Assembly: GCF_023169965.1 (NCBI RefSeq)
Contig: NZ_AP025592.1
Span: 3,100,001 to 3,164,000 of the forward strand
Origin: Anaeromyxobacter paludicola
Lineage (GTDB): Bacteria; Myxococcota; Myxococcia; Myxococcales; Anaeromyxobacteraceae
DNA: 64,000 nt
Direction: 5' to 3'
Positions 38,761 through 56,190 of the stretch are shown one piece after another. Below the pieces are notes generated by a model that saw only the letters and a list, made by a program, of their open reading frames with translations, was not told the origin of the DNA and searched no databases. The position numbers were made by a program, and so were the translations under genes. The stretch's first letter is position 1; every line of letters starts with the position of its first letter.

Positions 38761-39929
38761 TCGAGGAGCTCCACGCTGGACGGAGGCGCGCCGCCTCCCA
38801 AGGACCAGCGGTACACGGAGTGGACCTGCTCCGCCACCTCCTGCCACGTGTAGCGGCGCAGGACCTCCTCGCGCCCGCGCGCGCCGAGCCGCTCCCGCTC
38901 GCCGGGCGGCAGCCGCACGAGGTCTCGCAGCGCCGCCGACAGCGAGCCCTCCTCTGGATCGCAGACCAGCCCGGCGCCGAGCGCCTGCACGTCGAAGTTG
39001 CACGCACGGGTGACGACCACCGGCAGCCCGAGGCTCATCGCCTCGAGCACCGCCATCGAGAACCCCTCCGAGTGCGAGGGCAGCACGAAGGCGTCCGCGG
39101 CCGTGAGCGCCTCCGCCTTGGCCTCCCCGAAGAGCGGGCCGGTGAAGAGCACGGACCGCTGCAGGCCGCGCTCCGCCACGCGGCCCGCCACCTCGGCGGC
39201 GTGCCCGAGCTGATCCGGGCCGGCGACCACCAATAGCCAGTCCTCGCGGGCGAGCTCCGCCTCGCGGGCGAGCCGCGCCCAGGCCTCCACCAGGATGGGC
39301 AGGCCCTTCTTCGGATGGATGCGGCCGAGGAAGAGCAGGAGGCGGCGGTTCGCGACGGACGGGAAGCGGGCCGCGAAGGCGCCTCGGTCCGGCCGCGCGG
39401 CGGGAGGCGTGACGCCGTTCGGGATCACGGCGATCGGGTTTCGCAGGCCGAGGGCCCGGAAGGCCCGCGCCTCGTTCTGGTTGAGCGCGTGCAGGCAGCG
39501 CGCGCCGCGCAGGTTGCCCTCCTCCACCAGCGCCCAGAACAGCCGCTTCTTCCAGCGGGAGTGGGCGAGCGCCCAGGGCTCCAGCATCCCGTGCGGCGTG
39601 ACCAGCACCGGGCGGCCGGACCCGCGACCCCAGCGGCGCGCCGCGCGCGACGGCCAGGTGAAGAGGCCGTGGAGGTGGAGCAGGTCCGGCGCGGGGCCGG
39701 CGAGCGCGCGCGCGAGCCCGGGGGCGAACCCGAGCGCGAGCGGGCCCCGGTGGGGGAAGAGCTCGGCCGAGTCGCCGCACTCGGTCAGCGCCGGCGCGGC
39801 GGGATCGCGCACCCCGAGCAGCCGCGGGCGGAGGCCGGCCTGGTGCTGCGCCGCCGCCAGCGCGGCCACCACCGGCGGGATGCCGCCGCCCCGCACCGAC
39901 AGGAGCCAGGTGAGGTGCGCGGGGATCAT
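38757..39929 (-). CDS. Glycosyltransferase family 4
   Basis: A 390-residue transferase: an N-terminal domain with 'LLSVRGGGIPPVVAALAAAQ', the acceptor-side 'LVTPHGMLEPWALAHSRWKKRLFW', then the GT4 C-domain 'LLFLGRIHPKKGLPILVEAW' and 'SHSEGFSMAVLEAMSLGLPVVVT' (the E-x7-E region). It is closely related to the plus-strand transferase at 58.6 kb, sharing the 'TPHG.L.PWAL' block. It probably adds one sugar of the repeat unit. It overlaps the neighbouring genes by 4 bases on both sides. Confidence 0.93.
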   Translation of the reverse strand: MIPAHLTWLLSVRGGGIPPVVAALAAAQHQAGLRPRLLGVRDPAAPALTECGDSAELFPHRGPLALGFAPGLARALAGPAPDLLHLHGLFTWPSRAARRWGRGSGRPVLVTPHGMLEPWALAHSRWKKRLFWALVEEGNLRGARCLHALNQNEARAFRALGLRNPIAVIPNGVTPPAARPDRGAFAARFPSVANRRLLLFLGRIHPKKGLPILVEAWARLAREAELAREDWLLVVAGPDQLGHAAEVAGRVAERGLQRSVLFTGPLFGEAKAEALTAADAFVLPSHSEGFSMAVLEAMSLGLPVVVTRACNFDVQALGAGLVCDPEEGSLSAALRDLVRLPPGERERLGARGREEVLRRYTWQEVAEQVHSVYRWSLGGGAPPSSVELLE

Positions 39930-40666
39930 GCCCGGCGGCAGACGTAGATCTGGTTGACGCCCAGTCGTGACAACCCAACACTTCCGGCTGCCCAGCGTTC
40001 GATTTCGAGTGTGCGCTCCTCTCCGAGTCGCCTGGCAACGAGACCTGGCAAGACGCCGAGCCCCACGACCCGCTCCACTATCAGGCCAGCGCCCTTCAAC
40101 AAATCGAGCGTCCGCCGCGCACTGAGATACCGCTCCGTGCGGCGCCCCAGCGCTCGCCTAACCAATCCGAAGGGGGCAGACACCACCTTGTAGCTGGGCA
40201 GGCTCCCGTGGTTGTTCACGATCAGTCGGGCCTCTCTATCTCGCAAACGAGCCGCGAGCCTCATCAGAACGGTCTCCCGCAACGAATCCTCGGCGTTCAG
40301 AAGGAACCGGAACGCGGTGATGAGGTCATACTCTGCCTCTACGCCCGTCTCGGCCGTGATGTCCTTCAGCAACAACTCAGCATTCGGACACTTGGCTCGG
40401 GCCTGCTCGAGCATCGCGGGGGACACATCGATTCCACGAGTCCTAGAGAAGTTCGGCTGCACATAGGAGAGGACCCGCCCTGTGCCGCAGGCGAAGTCCA
40501 GATAATCAGCAAGCCTGTTCCGGCCCCTCAGTTCCTCCACCACGCCCGCGAGCACGTTCTGCTCCAATCTCCACTGCAGATCCCAATAGCTGCCTGGCCT
40601 GTATTGGTCCGCGTCGTAGAGCGCGCCAGCACCGCTCGCCCTGAAAGCATCGCGATAGGACTTCAC
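39926..40666 (-). CDS. Class I SAM-dependent methyltransferase
   Basis: A 246-residue methyltransferase with motif I 'LDFACGTGRVLSYV', 'GIDVSPAMLEQARAKCP' and 'AEYDLITAFRFLLNAEDSL'. It may methylate a sugar or a lipid-linked intermediate. The start is GTG 40666: it has an AGGAGG site six bases upstream and overlaps the next gene's stop by 4 bases (GTGA). A TTG at 40684 was rejected. Base composition is clearly less GC-rich than in the genes downstream, so it belongs to the probable acquired segment. Confidence 0.88.
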   Translation of the reverse strand: MKSYRDAFRASGAGALYDADQYRPGSYWDLQWRLEQNVLAGVVEELRGRNRLADYLDFACGTGRVLSYVQPNFSRTRGIDVSPAMLEQARAKCPNAELLLKDITAETGVEAEYDLITAFRFLLNAEDSLRETVLMRLAARLRDREARLIVNNHGSLPSYKVVSAPFGLVRRALGRRTERYLSARRTLDLLKGAGLIVERVVGLGVLPGLVARRLGEERTLEIERWAAGSVGLSRLGVNQIYVCRRA

Positions 40667-42810
40667 GCACCGCCTCCTCTCCAACTCTGGATGATCTCAC
40701 CGGCCGCGGTGACCCCGCGCGCCTGCAAAAACAGCAGGCTCAGCATTACATCGCGCTCCCTGTATCCACACGCGTCGAAGTCAGCCAGCAGGCGAGCGGC
40801 CACCTGGCCGGGGGCCTGCCCTGCCCACCTCGTCATGCGCCCCAGCCAGAAACGAACTGGGTCCGCAAGAACGGGCGCATCCTCGGCGAAGGACTCCCAG
40901 TCGAACAACCACAGTCGCTCTCTGCTACGCACCAGATTCCAGTGCACGAAGTCTCCATGCGCACGACATGCGCGCACCTCCGCGCCGGCGCCAATCCGGG
41001 CCGCGAGGTCCTTGTACTCAGCCCCTATCAGCGGCCACCAACTCGCCTTCTCACAACGAGCCAGGCGGAACTCACTTCCCGCCAGTTCCGATTGCACTCC
41101 CGCGACGGCATCGGACCAGTGGGGCGCAACGCACTTGGCTTCCACGGGGATGCCCTCGAGAACGAGCAGTCGATGATCCTCGAACAGATCGAGCCCGATG
41201 ACTCGAGGAGCAGTGAAGCGCTCTGGGCAGACTCTCCGGATCTCGTTGATCCCAGCAGCCTCTCGAACGAGGTCTTGATCGGCGAGCGAGTCCAGGGACG
41301 CCTTTGCGAAGGCGATGCGGCGCCCGAGCTTGTCGAACAGGTGAACATAGATGCGGCGGCGCTGCAGCTGGCGGGGATGAACAAACACCGCCGCGAGATT
41401 CGCATCGCCCAGGAGGTCGCAAAGGTGCTTCTCCAGGGCCTCCGCCGAGCCTGCATTCAACGCGGCGACAGGCGTCGCAGCGGAGCGAGACACGAGCGGC
41501 GCGCCGCCACATTTCACGGCGAGCGCAATACCGCTTCGGTAAGCTCGAGCGCGAACGCTGTGTCTCGGAAGGGCTTCGACCGTGTGTCGGCTGTTCGCCC
41601 CCTCGCGGCGGCAGGCGGCGATGTCCCGACCAGCGAAGGAAAACACCCGATACCTGCGGTCGCCGGCCCGCATTGCCGTCATGAATCCCTTGACGAATGC
41701 ATCGCCGCCCCAGCGCTCCACGTCACCAGCGGCCTGAGTACCCATGGCATCGGCTCGCCCTGCGTCTCGCGCCAGCTCCGACATGGCGGCAGCAAGAGCA
41801 GGCGTTGTGGGCGGAAACGTGAACCCGTTCACCCCTGGACGCACCAGAGCAGCCGATCCGGCCGCTTCCGACACTAGAACCGGAACCCCCGCAGCCATTG
41901 CCTCATTGGTCACCAATCCCCACTGCTCGGTGGTACTCGGCAGCACGAACCCCGAAGCCAAGCCGTAATAGCTCGGCAATTCGGCATATTGCTTGAACCC
42001 CGGCATCAACACCGTGTCTTTGAGACCCAGCCTGCCTCGCGTCGCCTCCAACTCCGACCGCAGAGGGCCGTCCCCCAGGAGCACCAGCTGCCACGCCGAT
42101 TTGCCGGCTCCCCTCCGGTAGATCCCGTAGGCCTCCAGCAGGCAGCTCAGGTTCTTCTTTGGGATGAAACGCGCGCTGCAAAGGAAATAGCGCTCGGGTA
42201 GAGCCAGCTCACGGCGAAGCTTCGTTGCCACAGCGCGGGCGCGTGCCGCGCCTTCTGCGAAATACGCATTATCCACCACGTCATACCCGAGCGCTATTCG
42301 CCCTGGGTCCATGCCCATGCGAACAAGGTAATCGGCATGCGTGGGTCCGCCGACCAGGGCGGCGTCGAAGCGGCGCACAATCCAAGCCTTCCCGGTCTCC
42401 TTGAAGATGTTCCTCGCGCAGTCGTGCTCTTGGCTATCGGACATCAGGACAGCGACACGCCGGCGGCGCTTGCACCACGCCAAAGCCGAGAGCGCCTCGG
42501 CAACAGCCCACCCGTGGATCCCCACCACGTCAGGGGATTCTTCCTCGAGCGCCCGCACGACCGATACTGATCGGCGGATGGCGCTGACGTCCTGGTAATC
42601 CGCGCCTCGAATCGCCGTGCGGCGTCGGAAACCTGCAGCCACGACCGGCTCCCAATCGTACTCCCGCGTGCCGGATGCGACTTCCAGCCCCAGCACTCGC
42701 TCCTCTCCACACCTTTGCGTCAGCGCCGCCAACCGAGCTGCGTGATATGGGCCAAAACGGCCGAAGATCACGGTGATGCGGGCACTGTCGTTCACTTGGC
42801 CACCCCACAT
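40663..42810 (-). CDS. Fusion of a family 4 glycosyltransferase with an APH-like phosphotransferase domain
   Basis: About 715 residues. The N-terminal 400 are a GT4 enzyme: 'ITVIFGRFGPYHAARLAAL', 'SARFIPKKNLSCLLEAYGIY' and the E-x7-E segment 'TTEQWGLVTNEAMAAGVPVL' near 290-310. The C-terminal 280 look like an aminoglycoside-phosphotransferase/choline-kinase fold: 'AHGDFVHWNL' near 618-627 (catalytic Asp and Asn) and 'LFDWESF' near 635 (metal-binding Asp). It might add a sugar and a phosphate to the same product, or the kinase half may be regulatory. The start is ATG 42810 or GTG 42795; neither has a strong site. Lower GC than its surroundings suggests transfer. The GTGA overlap couples it to the methyltransferase. 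Confidence 0.82.
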   Translation of the reverse strand: MWGGQVNDSARITVIFGRFGPYHAARLAALTQRCGEERVLGLEVASGTREYDWEPVVAAGFRRRTAIRGADYQDVSAIRRSVSVVRALEEESPDVVGIHGWAVAEALSALAWCKRRRRVAVLMSDSQEHDCARNIFKETGKAWIVRRFDAALVGGPTHADYLVRMGMDPGRIALGYDVVDNAYFAEGAARARAVATKLRRELALPERYFLCSARFIPKKNLSCLLEAYGIYRRGAGKSAWQLVLLGDGPLRSELEATRGRLGLKDTVLMPGFKQYAELPSYYGLASGFVLPSTTEQWGLVTNEAMAAGVPVLVSEAAGSAALVRPGVNGFTFPPTTPALAAAMSELARDAGRADAMGTQAAGDVERWGGDAFVKGFMTAMRAGDRRYRVFSFAGRDIAACRREGANSRHTVEALPRHSVRARAYRSGIALAVKCGGAPLVSRSAATPVAALNAGSAEALEKHLCDLLGDANLAAVFVHPRQLQRRRIYVHLFDKLGRRIAFAKASLDSLADQDLVREAAGINEIRRVCPERFTAPRVIGLDLFEDHRLLVLEGIPVEAKCVAPHWSDAVAGVQSELAGSEFRLARCEKASWWPLIGAEYKDLAARIGAGAEVRACRAHGDFVHWNLVRSRERLWLFDWESFAEDAPVLADPVRFWLGRMTRWAGQAPGQVAARLLADFDACGYRERDVMLSLLFLQARGVTAAGEIIQSWRGGGA

Positions 42811-42916
42811 AGACTTCGCTCGAAGCCCCGGCCGCTCACGCGCGGACGCTCCCGAGGCTTTCCAATGGTTCGGTGCCGCCTCGGTACCGGCCACTTCGCG
42901 CGATTCAGGACGGCAC

Positions 42917-44260
42917 TCATCGCACGGCGGGCAACGCGCCGGAAGGGATGAGCCTCGCCTTGCGTATCCGGGCAAGCCGGAAGATCACCCGGGGAACAGC
43001 AACGTAGATCGCGAGCGGCACTGCTGCTGCGGTGAAGCCTTGACTTACAAGCCAGTGACTTGCGCTCAACACACCCGCGTAGGTCATGAATGCCCGCGGG
43101 TCATTGTGCTCCGCCGCCCGTCGGTAGAATCCCGAGGCCAGGTAACCACTCAAGAACCACAGCAATGGACTGAACCAGCCCACTTGCATGAAGACCTCGG
43201 CGACCCCGCCTACGGACGCACCCACGGTCGCTTCTCGTCCGAACACATGCGGCATTTCGTCGAGCGCGGAGCAGAACGCCCCCGTGCCGAGCTGTGGTTT
43301 ATCGCGCCAGACCGCACGCGGGATCCAATGCACGAGCAGGGACAGGTACCCGGTGCCGTACTCGTAACAGGACAGCTCCACCGCCGTCGCGATCGAGCCG
43401 CAATGATAGAAGTACTCATTGTCCCCTTCCTGCTTCACTCGCTTGCCGAACACGTCCTCGAACGTCACTTTCGAGAGCGCCTCCGACCAGCCAGCAAGCC
43501 GCTGAGTTGAGTCGACCACGTAGGAGCCGCGTTCGTCGTACAGAATGGGCCTCACGGCTACCGCCAGAAGCATGAGCACCCCGACGCCTGCGATCGAGCC
43601 GAGCACGACCTTCCGGCTCGGCTTCGTGCGAGACGTGAACCCCCCAACCAGCAGCAGCATGATGGCCATCGGGAACAAGGGGCCTCGTCGTGCGTTCAGC
43701 ACATGCGGCCACATCACCAGCGCGACCAGCCCGGCAAATGCGAGCCATCGCCCCTTCGTGCGCATGTGAGCATTCGACCGCATCACCATGAGGCACACAC
43801 CAGCGGCCGGATAGCTCACGTGGAACAACAGGTACCAGTATGCGCTTGTGTTTTCCCAATCGATCTCTGACTGGCCGATGAATCGATAGAAGGCTACCGC
43901 GCCCACCACCATTACGGTCGCCCCGAGATTCCACGCGCGTCGAGCCGAGTATCTCGTCGGCCATTCCGACAGCACCGGTCGCGAGGGTTTACGAGGCAGC
44001 CCGAATCTCCACCCCAGGAGCACGGCCGCGAGAGCCAGAAGCGCTACGGCTTGTCCGAGCTCATAAGTGTACGGTGGCAGATAGTCCGCCAGGGTCGTCG
44101 CGGCCCCCCACCCCATGAAGACGTAGAAGTACAGCCACATTGCCGCGAGCAGGAGCGGGTACTCGAGAAGACGATCGTCGCTCTTGGCGGCGGAGTAGAT
44201 GGCCCACAATGCGAGCCCCGCAGTCGCGAGGAGCAGCAGGGAAAAGAGTATGGAGATCAT
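42917..44260 (-). CDS. wzy: Polysaccharide polymerase (Wzy-type) membrane protein
   Basis: A 447-residue protein with about eleven membrane helices and little sequence conservation, as usual for Wzy. It starts 'MISILFSLLLLATAGLALWAIYSAAKS'. A large periplasmic loop of about 110 residues (from 'LYDERGSYVVDSTQRLAG' to 'PHVFGREATVGASVGG') contains 'LLVHWIPRAVWRDKPQLGTG', a pattern common to oligosaccharide repeat-unit polymerases. It joins repeat units at the outer face of the inner membrane. The ATG overlaps the upstream transferase stop by 4 bases. It has a less GC-rich codon choice than the flanking locus. Confidence 0.82.
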   Translation of the reverse strand: MISILFSLLLLATAGLALWAIYSAAKSDDRLLEYPLLLAAMWLYFYVFMGWGAATTLADYLPPYTYELGQAVALLALAAVLLGWRFGLPRKPSRPVLSEWPTRYSARRAWNLGATVMVVGAVAFYRFIGQSEIDWENTSAYWYLLFHVSYPAAGVCLMVMRSNAHMRTKGRWLAFAGLVALVMWPHVLNARRGPLFPMAIMLLLVGGFTSRTKPSRKVVLGSIAGVGVLMLLAVAVRPILYDERGSYVVDSTQRLAGWSEALSKVTFEDVFGKRVKQEGDNEYFYHCGSIATAVELSCYEYGTGYLSLLVHWIPRAVWRDKPQLGTGAFCSALDEMPHVFGREATVGASVGGVAEVFMQVGWFSPLLWFLSGYLASGFYRRAAEHNDPRAFMTYAGVLSASHWLVSQGFTAAAVPLAIYVAVPRVIFRLARIRKARLIPSGALPAVR

Positions 44261-45511: not shown

Positions 45512-46708
45512 TCACGCAACCCACCGGCGCACCAGGTGCTTGCACCACTCCGGCGCCAGGCTCCTGATCCCGGGGCCGAAGCCTCGCGGATAGCTCCACC
45601 GCGAGATGGACAGCGGTGGTCTCGCGAGTCCTCGTGCCTCCGCGTCCGCGACGACCTTGGCGTAGGCGCTTCCCATCGCCTCGCAGTCCAGCATCCGTCG
45701 AGCGGTCTCCCGCGCGTTGTCCGAGAGCCTGGCGAGCTCCTTTCCGTGGGTTTGTAGGTTGCGCAGGATCTCCGCGGCTTCTCGTGTCCGCCCCACTCCG
45801 AACAGCTCACCGTCGACGCCCGGGCGCACCATGAAGTCGGTCACGCCCCGGATCCGGGAAAGCACCGGGACGCATCCCGCTGCCATTGCTTCCAACGCGA
45901 CCATCGGCAGGCCCTCGAAGCGCGAAGGCATCAGGAGCACGTCGTGCGTGGCGAGCAGCCTGGGGACCTCGCCGGGAGGAACCGCGCCGACGAAGGCGAT
46001 CGTGCCATCCAGGTCGCGACAGGCTTCCTCGAGACGCGCGCGGTCGACGCCGTCCCCCGCGACCGTCAGGGTGATGGGAGCGTCGCGTACCTGGCGCATG
46101 ATCTCGGGCAGCCAGAGGACCCCCTTGGCGCTCTCCTCGATCCTGCCGAGGAACAGGACGCGCAGCGGGCCGCCGGCCTTCTCCCCTCGCCCCTTGGCGT
46201 ACGAAGAGACCGGGACCGCGTTCGGCACGCAGACGGTGCTCTGGACGGGGAAGCGGTGTCTTCGGACCAGGTCATCCACGATCCGTGGCGAGACCCCTAT
46301 GGTCGCCTGGACGTGGTCACGGAGCGCGCGCGCCGCCGCGTAGGTTCCCGGAGTGATGTTGTGGACCACCATGATCCGCGTGACCCTCGGCCCCAGGTAG
46401 CGCGCCACGTTCATCTCGGCGGCGCTGGTCAGGACGTTCACGAAGACGCCGTCGTAGTGCGACTCGAGGTGCTGGACGAGCGCCCGGCCGACATCCGCGC
46501 CCGAGTCGGACGACGCGGGTGCGAGCTCTCCCTCCCCATCCTCCATGCGCGCTCTCGCCGCCTCACGATCGGACGTCGCCGCGAGCCACCGCAACTCCAC
46601 CCCATGGCGCGCGAGCGCACCGCGCAGGACCGAGAAGACCGTGTAGGTCCCTCCCATGTGCGGCCGGACGAGGAAGGCGTACCGGCGAGGAGACCGGCTA
46701 TGGCTCAT
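45512..46708 (-). CDS. Glycosyltransferase family 4
   Basis: A 398-residue GT4 enzyme: 'FLVRPHMGGTYTVFSVLRGALARHG' at the N-terminus, 'RIMVVHNITPGTYAAARAL', 'VLFLGRIEESAKGVLWLPEIM' and 'PSRFEGLPMVALEAMAAGCVPVLS' (E-x7-E). It overlaps the flippase gene by 11 bases and probably adds a sugar to the repeat unit. Composition is between that of the less GC-rich core and the rest of the locus. Confidence 0.92.
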   Translation of the reverse strand: MSHSRSPRRYAFLVRPHMGGTYTVFSVLRGALARHGVELRWLAATSDREAARARMEDGEGELAPASSDSGADVGRALVQHLESHYDGVFVNVLTSAAEMNVARYLGPRVTRIMVVHNITPGTYAAARALRDHVQATIGVSPRIVDDLVRRHRFPVQSTVCVPNAVPVSSYAKGRGEKAGGPLRVLFLGRIEESAKGVLWLPEIMRQVRDAPITLTVAGDGVDRARLEEACRDLDGTIAFVGAVPPGEVPRLLATHDVLLMPSRFEGLPMVALEAMAAGCVPVLSRIRGVTDFMVRPGVDGELFGVGRTREAAEILRNLQTHGKELARLSDNARETARRMLDCEAMGSAYAKVVADAEARGLARPPLSISRWSYPRGFGPGIRSLAPEWCKHLVRRWVA

Positions 46709-48245
46709 AGGAGCTCCTCACGCCGAAGCGCCCGCGAGCGAGCTGGAGCACCCGCTCGCGCTCCTCGGGTGCCAGCGCGACAAACCAGATCAAGACCAGG
46801 TACGCGCTTCCGTAGAGCGAGACCGCCTCGACCAGGTTCGCCCACGTGCAATGCTCGGCCAGGGGCAGCGTCTGGGTCGCCAGCGCTGCCGCTACGACAG
46901 CGGCGAGCGCTGCCGGCCAGATGCGCTGCAATGTCTGCACGGCAGTGACCCGGAGTTGGCGGCTCGCCCGCCAGAGGATGTATGCGGTCGTCGGGACCTT
47001 GGCGACCACGCTCGCCCACATGACCCCGGCCATTCCCATCCGCCGACCGAGCCAGAAGGACAAGGCGAGGTTCGCGACCCCTTCCACGGCGGTGAGCCCG
47101 GACAGACCGCCCAGCCGGCCGGTCGCGACGATGAAGGGTTGCGCCACGTAGGACGTGGTCAGCACGGCGAAGGCCGCGAGCGCCCAGGCCATGGACGTTC
47201 CGGCGAACTGCTGCGGCCCAACCCAGCAAGACACCAGCGGGCCCGTATAGACCCCGATCCCGACCGCGATCGGGAAGGCCGCGACGGCCATGAGCTTGTG
47301 CATCCTGAGATAGGACCGTCGCAGCGCAACTTCCGCGCCCTTGGCGTGAAGCTCCTGGATTGCGGGGCTGGCGTTGTCCGATAGGCGCAGGGGCAGGTTC
47401 CAGAGGACGATCGCTGGCATCTGGGTGGCGTAATACACGCCAGCCGAGGCGGCGCCGAACAGGGACCCCACCACGATGGAATCGGTCTGCAGGATCAGCC
47501 TGACCGCGAGGTTGAGCAGCAGGGCCTGCGATCCGAACGCGAGCAGTGCCCGTATCCGCTCGGGCGCGGAGCGCCCCCACTTGCTGAGCGGTCGATGATG
47601 ACGCGTGAACAGCCAGGACTGGATGCCGGTGGTGATCGCCTCTCCCACGACCTGACCGACCATGAGGCCGGCCACTCCGTAACCGCCCCAGACCAGGGCC
47701 AGTGCGAACACCAGCCGCGAGAAGTTTCCGAAGAGAGCCGCCGCGTTCGCCTTGGCCAGATCCTGCACGGCCGTCAGCGCCGTCGCGCGCACGATGACCG
47801 GGGTGCGGACGAGCGCCCACGCCGCAACCACCGCGAGCCCGATCCGGCCCTGGCGAATCGACTCCGGGGCGGCCTGCACCAGGTGCGGCAGGCACCAGGC
47901 GAGCCCCGCGACCAGCAGGGCGAACGCGCCGTTCGTCACCCTGCCGAAGGCCCGCGCAGAGCCGAGCAGGCCGGGGAAGACCGCCGCGCGGTCGTCGCGG
48001 CCGCTCGCCTGGGCGAGCTCGCGCCCGAGCGCGAGGGAGAGGCCGAGATCGACGAGGGCGAGGTAACCGAGCGACTGCCCGATGATCGAGTAGACCCCGA
48101 GCGCCTCCTGGCCGGCGAAGCGCAGGACCATCGGCGCGAGCAGCGCCTGGAACAGCATCTGCAGCACGTACTGGAGCAGGCCGGCGGCCGCTCCCGCCGC
48201 GGCTCGCTGGGTCCGCCCCGTGGTGGGCGCTTGGTGGTCGTTCAT
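46698..48245 (-). CDS. wzx: Oligosaccharide flippase (Wzx, PST/MOP family)
   Basis: A 515-residue polytopic protein with about twelve to fourteen membrane helices, starting 'MNDHQAPTTGRTQRAAAGAAAGLLQYVLQMLFQALLAP'. The family pattern is visible in 'LALVDLGLSLALGRELAQ', 'LLNLAVRLILQTDSIVVGSLFGAASAGVYYA' and 'GLTAVEGVANLALSFWLGRRMGMAG'. It moves the lipid-linked repeat unit across the inner membrane. ATG 48245 was chosen because it begins the first amphipathic helix. It is the first gene of the minus-strand run down to 36998; its promoter should lie in the 167-base gap 48246-48412. Confidence 0.9.
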   Translation of the reverse strand: MNDHQAPTTGRTQRAAAGAAAGLLQYVLQMLFQALLAPMVLRFAGQEALGVYSIIGQSLGYLALVDLGLSLALGRELAQASGRDDRAAVFPGLLGSARAFGRVTNGAFALLVAGLAWCLPHLVQAAPESIRQGRIGLAVVAAWALVRTPVIVRATALTAVQDLAKANAAALFGNFSRLVFALALVWGGYGVAGLMVGQVVGEAITTGIQSWLFTRHHRPLSKWGRSAPERIRALLAFGSQALLLNLAVRLILQTDSIVVGSLFGAASAGVYYATQMPAIVLWNLPLRLSDNASPAIQELHAKGAEVALRRSYLRMHKLMAVAAFPIAVGIGVYTGPLVSCWVGPQQFAGTSMAWALAAFAVLTTSYVAQPFIVATGRLGGLSGLTAVEGVANLALSFWLGRRMGMAGVMWASVVAKVPTTAYILWRASRQLRVTAVQTLQRIWPAALAAVVAAALATQTLPLAEHCTWANLVEAVSLYGSAYLVLIWFVALAPEERERVLQLARGRFGVRSSYEP

Positions 48246-48412
48246 CACGCTGGGTTCCGGCACGTCCGCCCCGCGCTGGAACAGCGCGACACGTCCGGAG
48301 CTTACCGCGAAGGCCCCCCGCGCTCCTAGAAGGGGCAGCCGGCCGCGCGGCGGGAAGCAGGCGAGGAGACGAGGGGCTCCTCTCCCCGGGGTGGAACGCG
48401 GGGCCAAGATCG

Positions 48413-48733
48413 GTGTATCTCGTTTCCGTGAAGCTCGAACTGACCCCATCGACCAAGGGTTGCGCTCGGTGCGGCTCCGCTCACCTCCGCTCCTCGCGCG
48501 CTCGCCGCGGCAAGGAGCGACTGCTGCGCGAGCTCACCCGCACCCGCTTCTACCGCTGCCGCGACTGCGGCCACCGGGGGAGCTACCGGGCGTCCGCCCG
48601 CTCTCCGTTCGGCGGCCGCGCCTCCGACGAGCACACGATCCGGAGCACGTGGCGCACCCGGCTCATCATCGCCGGCTTCATCGCGGCCGCGCTGGTCCTC
48701 GGGATCTGGTCGGGGCTCAACGCCCACGGCTGA
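48413..48733 (+). CDS. Small zinc-ribbon protein with C-terminal membrane helix
   Basis: About 106 residues from a GTG start (a second GTG at 48428 is possible). Two CxxC pairs, 'CARCGSAH' and 'YRCRDCGHRG', about 30 residues apart form a zinc ribbon. After an Arg/Ser-rich stretch, one membrane helix ('LIIAGFIAAALVLGIW') lies close to the C-terminus, so it is a tail-anchored protein with a cytoplasmic zinc domain. I do not recognise a family. It is divergent from wzx and convergent with the Wzi-like gene (10 bases apart). Confidence 0.6.
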   Translation: MYLVSVKLELTPSTKGCARCGSAHLRSSRARRGKERLLRELTRTRFYRCRDCGHRGSYRASARSPFGGRASDEHTIRSTWRTRLIIAGFIAAALVLGIWSGLNAHG

Positions 48734-48743
48734 TCCCCGGCGG

Positions 48744-50210
48744 TCAGAAGAACACCCGCCCCTCCGCCCCCAGCTCCCGCCGGTACCAGCCCGCCTCGCC
48801 GCGCTCGTAGCTCGCGCGCGCGCCCACCGCCGCGCGGCCGAACCGCCACTCCGCCTCGAGCTGCCCGCCCACGCTCCGGCCGGCCGCCGCGGGCGCGTAG
48901 AGGTTGTCGCGGAAGCGGTCCTGCACCCAGAGCGCGCCGGCGATCCGCGCGCGCCCGTCGAACGGGTCGGCCGCGCCGGTCAGGCGGAGCGCGCGCCCGT
49001 TCCCGCCGAGCGGATCGCCGAGCGGCGTCTCCCCCGTGGCCCAGCCGCCGGCGTACTGACCGTGCGAGTACCAGGCGAACGGGTCGTGGTAGCCGGACGG
49101 CCCCCGGCCGAAGTAGGCGTACTCGATCCCGAGCTCGGCGAGGATCCCCGGCACCATCGGCGCCGAGAGCCCAACGACCAGGCCGGGCCAGGTGACCGCG
49201 GCGCCGGGGTTGTCGTCCGATCCCCACTCCAGCCGGGCGGTCAGCGGCAGGAGCGCCTCCGTGGGCAGCCGGTAGCGGATCGCTCCCGAGTAGACGTTGT
49301 TCTCGCGGTAGTTCTTGATCCCCAGGATCGCGAGGGGGACGTCGTGCGCGTCGATCCCTTCCCACAGCGCGCCCCCGAACATCACGCCGCGGATGGCCGA
49401 GAGCGTGAGGCGCGGATGCGGGCGCCACTGGAGCTGGAACTCCCAGAGGAGCGGGTGGTACGGGTGACGCGCCTCCGAGAAGCGCGCGAGGGCGGTGTCG
49501 AGGGCGAGCTCGCCGAGGCCGCCGAGGAGGCCGGGCAGCCGCACCGGCGTCGTGGTCATGAGCTCGAGCCGATCCACCGCGGCGCGGCCGCTCGCCACCA
49601 CGGCCCCGAACGCGCCGGGGCCGTAGCCCACGGGCTCGCGACCGGCCGAGAGCGCCACTGGGCCGACGGCGAGCACCAGCTCACCGCCGCGCAGCTCCGC
49701 GTCCCACGCCGTGGCGCGCCCCTGGAGACCGATGGCGAGGTGCGGCCCCCAGCTCGCGGCCGCGGAGGTGTCGAGGACCGCGGCCGAGCCCGGCGCGCCG
49801 AGGCGGAGGGCGGCGGGCGCGGACGACGCCGGCGCGGCGGCCGGATGGGTGCCGCCGCCCTCGTAACCGGCGCCCACGCTGGCCCCCATCAGCCGGGGCA
49901 CGAAGGCATCGGCGGCGGCGCTCGCGCTCCCCGGGAACTCGGCGCGAAAGCGCTCCAGCCACGCCCGCGCCAGGGGCGCTGCCGCCGAGCCTTCCCGACC
50001 GGCCGCCGCGGCGGCCTGGGTCAGGGCGCGCTCAACCACCAGGATGGGCGCCGCGCGCTGCGCCGGAAGCCACTCCGGCGCGAGGCCGAGGTCGTGGAGC
50101 CGCGCCGCGGCCTGGACGGCCCAGTGCTCGGGCGGGAGCAGCGGCGAGGCGGGCGGCGCCTCCGTGATCGCGGTGCTCGCCGCGATGAGGAGCGCAAGCG
50201 CAGAATGCAT
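48744..50210 (-). CDS. Capsule assembly Wzi family outer-membrane protein
   Basis: A 488-residue exported protein. After the signal peptide come a helical segment with 'EHWAVQAAARLHDLGL' and then a beta-barrel with the Wzi features 'SAGREPVGYGPG', 'EARHPYHPLLWEFQLQWRPHPRLTLSAIRG', 'KNYRENNVYSGAIRYRL' and 'ELGIEYAYFGRGP'. The chain ends in '...RVFF', with a C-terminal Phe as in outer-membrane barrels. Wzi binds capsule polymer at the cell surface. Its place beside wzx and wza supports export of a capsule-like polysaccharide. Confidence 0.85.
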   Translation of the reverse strand: MHSALALLIAASTAITEAPPASPLLPPEHWAVQAAARLHDLGLAPEWLPAQRAAPILVVERALTQAAAAAGREGSAAAPLARAWLERFRAEFPGSASAAADAFVPRLMGASVGAGYEGGGTHPAAAPASSAPAALRLGAPGSAAVLDTSAAASWGPHLAIGLQGRATAWDAELRGGELVLAVGPVALSAGREPVGYGPGAFGAVVASGRAAVDRLELMTTTPVRLPGLLGGLGELALDTALARFSEARHPYHPLLWEFQLQWRPHPRLTLSAIRGVMFGGALWEGIDAHDVPLAILGIKNYRENNVYSGAIRYRLPTEALLPLTARLEWGSDDNPGAAVTWPGLVVGLSAPMVPGILAELGIEYAYFGRGPSGYHDPFAWYSHGQYAGGWATGETPLGDPLGGNGRALRLTGAADPFDGRARIAGALWVQDRFRDNLYAPAAAGRSVGGQLEAEWRFGRAAVGARASYERGEAGWYRRELGAEGRVFF

Positions 50211-54705: not shown

Positions 54706-56190
54706 TTATCGCACGGCGCCGCCCCGGAACCTGCTCCAGAGGGCGCGCACGCGCTCGCGGTCCACCGCCACCACCACCGCGAGGTAGACCGCGCCGGCGA
54801 GGAGGCTCGCGGCCGCCGCCCCGGCCAGCCCCTCCGGGCCGTGGCCGCGCAGCCGGGCCGCCGCCTCGACCGCCGCCCAGGCCACGCCCAGCGCCCCGAG
54901 CGGCGCCGCCATCTGCCGGAAGAAGCGGAACGGGCCGAGCTCGGCGCGCAGCCAGCGGCGCAGGAGCAGCGTGCCGGCCCAGAGCAGGAGCCCGGTCATT
55001 CCGACGCCCACCACCCCGAAGGCTCGAGTGAGGCCGACGATGAGCGCCCACGAGGCGACCAGCACGCCGAGGTTGATGCGCGAGATGAGGTGCGCCTTCC
55101 CGAGGCCGTTCGCGACGGCGTACATGGGCCCGGGGAGCGCCCCGAAGGCGACGTTGCCGGCGAGGAGCCAGCCGGCGAGCGGCAGCATCGGCTCCCACTG
55201 CGGGCCGAGCACCCCGACCACCAGCGCCCGCGGGAAGAGCACGAGGGGCAGGTAGCAGAGGGTGGCGAGGAGCGCGCTCGCGTGCACGGCGTCCTCGGCG
55301 AAGCGGCGCACCTGCTCCCGGTCGGCCTGGATGCGCGCCACGTAGGGGAACATGGTGCGCTGCTGGACCGCGGAGATAATCGCGAGCGGCAGGCCGCAGA
55401 CGAACCAGGCCCGCTCCACCAGGCCGGCCGCGGCGAGGCCGAGCACCGGCACGATGTAGAGCGGCACCACCGCCACCCGCGCCAGGTTGATGAGCTGCGC
55501 CGACTGGAAGTGGAGGCCGAAGCGGACGCCGCGCGCGAGCTCCTCGTCCCAGCCGACCGGGCCGCGCGGGAGCCGGAACCGGCCGATCGCCGCGGCGGCG
55601 GAGGCGCCGGCGACGGCCCGCGCGAGCTGCGCCAGGACCACGCTCCAGGCCCCGGCGCCGCGCGCCGCGGCGGCGACGGCCACCGCCGCGTAGACCGCCT
55701 CCTCGAGGATCTCGACCCGGACCACGCGGTCCAGCCGCAGCCCGCGCTCGAGCCGCAGGAGCGACATCCCGCGGACCACGAGGAGTGGCAGGGAGAGCGC
55801 GGCCGCCGCCACCATCCACCCGAGCCGCTGGCCCGGCGCGAGGGCGAACGCCACGCCGGCCCCGACCGCGCAAAGGAGGACGATGGCGCCGGCGAGCCGG
55901 AGCTGCAGGCCGGTGACGCGGGCGAGGTCGCGGTCGGTGACCTCCTCCGGCCGCTGCACGAGGTAGACGCCGAGGCCGCCGTCGGCGAGGAGGAGCGCGA
56001 GCTGCGTCACCACAGAGATGACCGCCACGCGCCCGAACTCGGCGGGGGAGAGGAAGCGGGTGAGGACCAGGCTCGAGCCGAGCCCGAGCGCCATCACCGC
56101 GAGCTGGCGGGCGCCGTAGCTCAGCACCGAGGCGCGGAACCGGCCGGAGAGCCCGGTGTCCGGGGCGGCGGGGTCAGCGGGCTGCGCCAT
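54706..56190 (-). CDS. Second oligosaccharide flippase (PST family)
   Basis: A 494-residue polytopic protein with about fourteen helices: 'SYGARQLAVMALGLGSSLVLTRFLSPAEFGRVAVISVV' and 'LLLADGGLGVYLVQRPEEVTDRDL' are typical of the lipopolysaccharide-biosynthesis PST group (WzxC/colanic-type), distinct from the flippase at 46.7 kb. It overlaps the next transferase by 17 bases. Two flippases in one locus suggest two different lipid-linked products. Confidence 0.9.
   Translation of the reverse strand: MAQPADPAAPDTGLSGRFRASVLSYGARQLAVMALGLGSSLVLTRFLSPAEFGRVAVISVVTQLALLLADGGLGVYLVQRPEEVTDRDLARVTGLQLRLAGAIVLLCAVGAGVAFALAPGQRLGWMVAAAALSLPLLVVRGMSLLRLERGLRLDRVVRVEILEEAVYAAVAVAAAARGAGAWSVVLAQLARAVAGASAAAAIGRFRLPRGPVGWDEELARGVRFGLHFQSAQLINLARVAVVPLYIVPVLGLAAAGLVERAWFVCGLPLAIISAVQQRTMFPYVARIQADREQVRRFAEDAVHASALLATLCYLPLVLFPRALVVGVLGPQWEPMLPLAGWLLAGNVAFGALPGPMYAVANGLGKAHLISRINLGVLVASWALIVGLTRAFGVVGVGMTGLLLWAGTLLLRRWLRAELGPFRFFRQMAAPLGALGVAWAAVEAAARLRGHGPEGLAGAAAASLLAGAVYLAVVVAVDRERVRALWSRFRGGAVR

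What the first reader, a model, noticed from the sequence alone, without database searches (positions are those of the whole stretch)
40663..42810. Glycosyltransferase fused to an APH-like kinase domain
A GT4 enzyme with an intact E-x7-E motif is joined to a domain with 'HGDFVHWN' and 'DWE' motifs of small-molecule kinases. A single protein may add a sugar and phosphorylate it or the lipid-linked glycan, which would give a phosphorylated polymer. I know of no well-studied example of this order.
Basis: partly seen in the sequence, partly recalled or inferred. Interest (0 to 1): 0.65.

Follow-up and report, generated by a model that had tools for sequence, protein, structure and literature searches.

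The report
Sugar transferase fused to divergent kinase
A bacterial gene in a polysaccharide-building cluster encodes one protein that combines a sugar-adding enzyme with a rare, divergent kinase, and it is coupled to a methyl-transferring enzyme, so the three activities may together put phosphate or methyl-phosphate on the polymer.

Summary
One open frame (40663-42810, minus strand, 715 aa) joins a complete GT4 glycosyltransferase (residues 1-~383, E-x7-E present) to a kinase-like domain (417-715). I found no sign of a frameshift. The kinase half matches no Pfam model, but a profile built without it from stand-alone 'phosphotransferases', mostly from polysaccharide clusters, finds it at E=1.7e-17. 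Four members of that family score above Pfam's APH cut-off. Lys503, Glu517, the HGD-x4-N motif, Asp637 and Glu639 are all kept; a nucleotide-loop glycine is lost. Every other member found is a separate gene or fused to something else, so I found no second example of this fusion. The next gene is a methyltransferase that overlaps the kinase stop by four bases (GTGA). In a related genome, a homologous methyltransferase again sits directly beside a stand-alone member of the same kinase family. The closest studied parallel is Klebsiella O7 ORF6: methyltransferase, APH-like kinase and GT modules in one protein, making a methylphosphate chain end. The best reading is a GT4-kinase that phosphorylates a lipid-linked glycan, perhaps followed by methylation. 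The substrate is unproven and the AlphaFold models were too poor to show a pocket. It is a new variant of a known kind.

The parts
40663..42810 (-). gene for the 715-aa GT4-kinase fusion protein
   Evidence: single open frame
41662..42810 (-). GT4 glycosyltransferase domain, residues 1-383
   Evidence: Pfam PF00534 E=1.4e-28, PF13692, PF13579; matches to relatives in other genomes end at about residue 380
41902..41928 (-). E-x7-E motif of the GT4 domain, E295-E303 (EQWGLVTNE)
   Evidence: invariant in the alignment with relatives
41563..41661 (-). junction, residues 384-416, Arg/Ala-rich
   Evidence: lies between the end of GT4 homology and the start of the family-profile match
40666..41562 (-). 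APH-like kinase domain, residues 417-715
   Evidence: profile of relatives built without this protein matches residues 417-677, E=1.7e-17
41302..41304 (-). K503, candidate ATP-binding lysine
   Evidence: invariant in 9 family members
41260..41262 (-). E517, candidate helix-C glutamate
   Evidence: invariant in 9 family members
40936..40959 (-). catalytic loop HGDFVHWN, D620 and N625
   Evidence: H618, D620, W624 and N625 invariant in 9 members
40894..40902 (-). metal-binding DWE, D637 and E639
   Evidence: D637 and E639 invariant in 9 members
40663..40666 (-). GTGA overlap: kinase stop and methyltransferase start
   Evidence: sequence read
39926..40666 (-). class I SAM-dependent methyltransferase, probable partner
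   Evidence: Pfam Methyltransf_25 E=7.9e-12; homologue lies beside a family kinase in genome G017
42917..44257 (-). probable repeat-unit polymerase (Wzy-like) upstream; part of the same low-GC block
   Evidence: NCBIfam TIGR04370 E=3.9e-4, below its cut-off; GC3 0.77

Best explanation
The protein is a bifunctional polysaccharide enzyme. Its GT4 half adds a sugar to a lipid-linked (undecaprenyl-diphosphate) repeat unit in the cytoplasm. Its C-terminal half, a divergent APH-like kinase from a family of 'phosphotransferases' found mostly in polysaccharide clusters, then transfers phosphate from a nucleotide to that glycan, most likely to the sugar just added. The overlapping downstream methyltransferase may then methylate the phosphate. 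The repeat unit is flipped and polymerised by the cluster's flippase and polymerase. Shown: the fusion, the two family assignments, the conserved catalytic residues, the gene coupling, and the recurrence of the methyltransferase-kinase pair. Inferred: kinase activity, the glycan as substrate, the order of reactions, and methylation of the phosphate.
For: GT4 half. Kinase half: a family HMM built without it hits at E=1.7e-17, next best window frame 0.028; its relative in L026 is 27% identical, E=2e-8. Members in L026, L027, L028 and L102 exceed the Pfam APH gathering score, and the best PDB matches of the family profile are choline/ethanolamine kinases, E=4e-4 and 4e-3. Catalytic residues are invariant in 9 members. 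Foldseek of the low-confidence model lists kinase folds at the top, including WbdD and APH enzymes, but none at E<=0.001. Relatives lie in polysaccharide clusters of Agrobacterium, Leisingera, Hymenobacter and genomes G103 and G017. The methyltransferase overlaps the kinase gene by GTGA, and its homologue in G017 is directly followed by a family kinase. Precedent for glycan kinase plus methyltransferase plus GT in one protein: K. pneumoniae O7 ORF6, PMC11231755.
Against: No direct Pfam, NCBIfam or PDB sequence match for the kinase half. The loop glycine kept in the 8 other members is Pro479 here, and the family 'TGT' loop motif is lost. AlphaFold models have mean pLDDT 41 and 36. One family member (L026) and the methyltransferase relatives on Mesorhizobium and Tardiphaga plasmids lie outside obvious polysaccharide clusters. 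In G041 the methyltransferase has no family kinase nearby.
Confidence: 0.5

Rival explanations
1. The kinase half acts on a small molecule (for example choline, ethanolamine, glycerol or a free sugar) to supply a phosphorylated precursor that is later attached to the glycan, as LicA-type choline kinases do; the fusion only co-localises two steps.
For: The best PDB matches of the family profile are choline/ethanolamine kinases. In G103 and Hymenobacter a family kinase is adjacent or fused to a nucleotidyltransferase-like plus thymidylate-kinase-like protein, as if building an activated precursor.
Against: No nucleotidyltransferase of that kind lies next to the window gene. Fusion to a GT and coupling to a methyltransferase fit a glycan substrate better. 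The choline kinase matches are weak and local.
Confidence: 0.25
2. The kinase half is a degenerate or regulatory pseudokinase that binds nucleotide or glycan and modulates the GT without phosphorylating anything.
For: Highly divergent, with the nucleotide-loop glycine and TGT motif lost; no Pfam match.
Against: All residues needed for catalysis in this fold are kept: K503, E517, D620, N625, D637.
Confidence: 0.15
3. Two genes read as one: a GT4 and a kinase whose separating stop was lost recently (real mutation or sequencing error), so the fusion has no functional meaning.
For: Elsewhere the two halves are separate genes. The junction (384-416) has a weak codon-position signal, and the first ~80 positions of the kinase profile are missing.
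Against: The frame is continuous; the other two frames at the junction carry stops and no homology to either half; the genome is a complete single contig. Loss of the kinase N-terminus is what an established fusion would show. No second copy exists to settle it.
Confidence: 0.1

Closest known systems
Klebsiella pneumoniae O7 ORF6 (PMC11231755)
   Same: One polypeptide combines an APH-like (AmiN-like) kinase with glycosyltransferase modules; a class I methyltransferase works with the kinase; the kinase matched no known family by sequence. CgnL (7pd7) is its methyltransferase's nearest structure and is among the PDB matches of the window's methyltransferase.
   Different: O7 order is methyltransferase-kinase-CBM-coiled coil-GT2-GT2 in an ABC-transporter system, where it ends chain growth. 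Here it is GT4-kinase with a separate methyltransferase, in a cluster with flippases and a probable polymerase. Sequence relation of the kinases could not be tested.
WbdD of E. coli O9a (PMC3482155)
   Same: Methyltransferase plus kinase that phosphorylates a lipid-linked glycan and methylates the phosphate; its structures rank high in Foldseek of the low-confidence model.
   Different: WbdD has no GT domain and its kinase is of the eukaryotic protein-kinase kind; WbdD is a chain terminator with a coiled coil.
Stand-alone phosphotransferases of polysaccharide clusters (Agrobacterium WP_304984092.1, Leisingera WP_164982827.1)
   Same: Same kinase family, same invariant residues, similar neighbourhoods.
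   Different: Not fused to a GT; about 375-390 aa with an intact N-terminal part; no known substrate.
LicA-type choline kinase (PDB 4r77, 3dxq)
   Same: Best solved-structure matches of the family profile; shared catalytic loop.
   Different: Free choline is the substrate; match is weak and covers only about 70 residues.

Membership tests
Glycosyltransferase family 4 (GT4) | GT4 N- and C-domain profile matches | tested here: met
   PF00534 E=1.4e-28, PF13692 E=7.7e-26, PF13579 31.2 bits over its cut-off
Glycosyltransferase family 4 (GT4) | E-x7-E motif in the donor site | tested here: met
   E295 and E303 aligned and invariant
Pfam APH (PF01636) | direct match to the curated profile | tested here: not met
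   no APH match at E<=10 for residues 446-715 or 371-715; so it is filed as APH-like, not as a PF01636 member
Polysaccharide-cluster phosphotransferase family (defined here), itself APH-related | match to a profile built without the window protein | tested here: met
   E=1.7e-17, residues 417-677; four members exceed the APH cut-off
APH-like kinase superfamily | ATP-site Lys, helix-C Glu, HGD-x4-N, metal-binding Asp | tested here: met
   K503, E517, H618-D620-N625, D637 invariant in 9 members
APH-like kinase superfamily | nucleotide-binding loop of the close family (glycine, TGT motif) | tested here: not met
   Pro479 where the 8 other members have Gly
APH-like kinase superfamily | two-lobed kinase fold with nucleotide pocket | tested here: inconclusive
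   pLDDT 41.5 and 35.6; Foldseek top hits are kinases but none at E<=0.001
WbdD/O7-type kinase-methyltransferase glycan modifier | kinase and methyltransferase paired | tested here: met
   GTGA overlap; pair recurs in G017
WbdD/O7-type kinase-methyltransferase glycan modifier | kinase and methyltransferase in one polypeptide | tested here: not met
   separate overlapping genes; hence 'may work like', not 'is'
WbdD/O7-type kinase-methyltransferase glycan modifier | coiled-coil region that sets chain length | not tested
   no coiled-coil prediction was run
WbdD/O7-type kinase-methyltransferase glycan modifier | ABC-transporter-dependent export | tested here: inconclusive
   the genes scanned include two flippases, Wzc- and Wza-like proteins and a weak polymerase match, and none matched an ABC transporter, but not every gene of the window was scanned
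WbdD/O7-type kinase-methyltransferase glycan modifier | phosphorylation of a lipid-linked glycan | not testable with these tools
   needs biochemistry

The most novel reading that the evidence does not exclude
A GT4-kinase fusion that, with its translationally coupled methyltransferase, puts methylphosphate on each repeat unit of a flippase/polymerase-made polysaccharide, extending the methylphosphate chemistry known from chain ends of ABC-exported O antigens to internal decoration of a Wzy-type polymer.
Probability: 0.25. Interest if true: 0.6.

Novelty: new variant of a known kind. Interest (0 to 1): 0.42.

Why it matters
If active, the protein couples sugar transfer and phosphorylation on one polypeptide and points to an unstudied kinase family, mostly in polysaccharide clusters of Alphaproteobacteria, Bacteroidota and the window's own phylum. 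Phosphate or methylphosphate groups change the charge of a polymer and would be missed by annotation, because most pipelines would call this gene only a glycosyltransferase.

Tried and rejected
The 8-mer scan of genome contigs with the kinase half found no relative. The phylum search with the kinase half alone gave only weak scattered hits. A tblastn of plasmids with it at the default E-value limit found nothing; relatives appeared only by stepping through L026. Viral contigs held no kinase relative. The frameshift idea was tested on the three frames of the junction and not supported. Antibiotic-resistance APH was considered and set aside: no direct Pfam match, and the cluster context is polysaccharide. 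PADLOC and PHROGs gave nothing. Literature searches for a GT-kinase fusion in polymerase-dependent systems returned nothing on point. Caution: the genome search is not exhaustive; the phylum search with the family profile missed the G017 kinase found later through the methyltransferase.

Full report
What is there. The frame 40663-42810 on the minus strand is open without a stop and encodes 715 residues. A GTG at 42795 is an equally good start. The window lies in a complete 4.59 Mb single-contig genome.

First half. Residues 1-~383 are a complete GT4 glycosyltransferase: PF00534 E=1.4e-28, PF13692 E=7.7e-26, PF13579 above its cut-off. The E295-x7-E303 motif is invariant in relatives. In the best relatives, in the phylum and on plasmids (Gloeothece 35%, Paraburkholderia 34%), the match stops at about residue 380; the two Gloeothece plasmid relatives are about 380 aa long and are annotated as plain GT4.

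Second half. Residues 446-715 and 371-715 match no Pfam model, residues 386-715 no NCBIfam model, and residues 446-715 no PDB chain. A degenerate DNA pattern for HGDFx[YHND]WN...DWE found a single other locus in the genome collection. It encodes a stand-alone protein 27% identical over 181 residues, E=2e-8, which passes the Pfam APH cut-off (29.6 bits against 23.2). Stepping from that protein led to 'phosphotransferase' genes in polysaccharide clusters of Agrobacterium leguminum and four Leisingera strains, to a Hymenobacter plasmid and to genome G103 of the same phylum. A profile built from seven of these sequences, without the window protein, hits the window protein at E=1.7e-17 over residues 417-677; the best other window frame scores E=0.028. 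Members in L026, L027, L028 and L102 score above the APH cut-off. The family profile's best PDB matches are choline/ethanolamine kinases (E=4e-4 and 4e-3). So the half is a divergent APH-like kinase, reached through a family that links to APH; it is not itself a PF01636 match.

Is it competent? In an alignment of nine members, R485, K503, E517, P535, H618, D620, W624, N625, D637, E639 and D650 are invariant. These cover the ATP lysine, helix-C glutamate, catalytic loop and metal-binding aspartate of this fold. Against this, the nucleotide-loop glycine kept in the eight others is Pro479 and the TGT motif is lost. AlphaFold could be run only with one homologue and gave mean pLDDT 41.5 and 35.6. 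I count that as weak support and leave the pocket question open.

Is the fusion real? The other two frames across the junction contain stops and carry no homology to either half. Residues 384-416 match neither family; the kinase N-terminal ~80 positions are missing and replaced by the GT. Codon-position signal is normal in both halves and weaker over the junction. Without a second copy, a recent loss of a stop codon cannot be fully excluded. All other family members seen are stand-alone, except the Hymenobacter protein, which is fused to nucleotidyltransferase-like and thymidylate-kinase-like domains.

Surroundings. The cluster holds GT4 enzymes, a WecA-like transferase, two flippases, a weak polymerase match, and Wzc-like, Wza-like and Wzi-like proteins, that is, a flippase/polymerase-type polysaccharide locus. 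The polymerase, fusion and methyltransferase genes have GC 0.62-0.65 and GC3 0.72-0.77, against GC3 0.86-0.99 in the clearly identified neighbouring cluster genes. This suggests a block acquired together. The methyltransferase start overlaps the fusion's stop (GTGA). Its subfamily was found in 3 of 195 phylum genomes. In G017 the homologue (37-38% identity) is directly followed by a stand-alone kinase of the same family, E=3.8e-14 with the independent profile, behind a weak flippase match and before a second methyltransferase. In G041 no family kinase was found in the 18 kb examined. Two adjacencies in independent settings argue for a functional pair.

Mechanism. Established precedents are WbdD (PMC3482155), which phosphorylates the terminal mannose and methylates the phosphate, and K. 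pneumoniae O7 ORF6 (PMC11231755), where methyltransferase, APH-like kinase and GT modules share one chain and the kinase was verified with a D441A mutant. The window protein most likely works in a similar way: the GT4 adds a sugar to the lipid-linked unit, the kinase phosphorylates it, and the coupled methyltransferase may methylate the phosphate. Because the cluster has flippases and a probable polymerase and I saw no ABC transporter among the genes scanned, the mark would more likely sit on repeat units than only at the chain end. Fusion, assignments, residues and gene pairing are shown; activity, substrate, order and methylation are inferred.

Verdict. The concept has a characterised precedent, so this is a new variant (order GT4-kinase, separate methyltransferase, different cluster type) with a little-studied kinase family behind it.

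Noticed in passing
window 39926-44257: Three consecutive genes (methyltransferase, GT4-kinase, polymerase) have GC 0.62-0.65 and GC3 0.72-0.77 inside a 0.74 GC window: a probable horizontally acquired block.
   Followed up: partly
L030:7794-10262 and L102:5626-8386: On a Hymenobacter plasmid a family kinase is fused to nucleotidyltransferase-like and thymidylate-kinase-like parts; in genome G103 the same parts are two adjacent genes. An undescribed kinase-NTase-TMK set in polysaccharide clusters.
   Followed up: partly
L111:9441-12023: In genome G017 a weak flippase match, methyltransferase, family kinase and a second methyltransferase follow one another, supporting a methyltransferase-kinase module.
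   Followed up: partly
window 48747-50210: A Wzi capsule-assembly homologue (PF14052, E=5.7e-21) sits between two flippase genes (46698-48449 and 54706-56190), which may mean two polysaccharide loci side by side.
   Followed up: no
L026:3968-5323: The MAG relative of the kinase has a long N-terminal part and no recognisable polysaccharide genes in its 8 kb, so the family may not be confined to polysaccharide synthesis.
   Followed up: no
L100:1264-2115: Genome G168 encodes a 284-aa family member with HGDYIYWN and IDFE motifs; context not examined.
   Followed up: no
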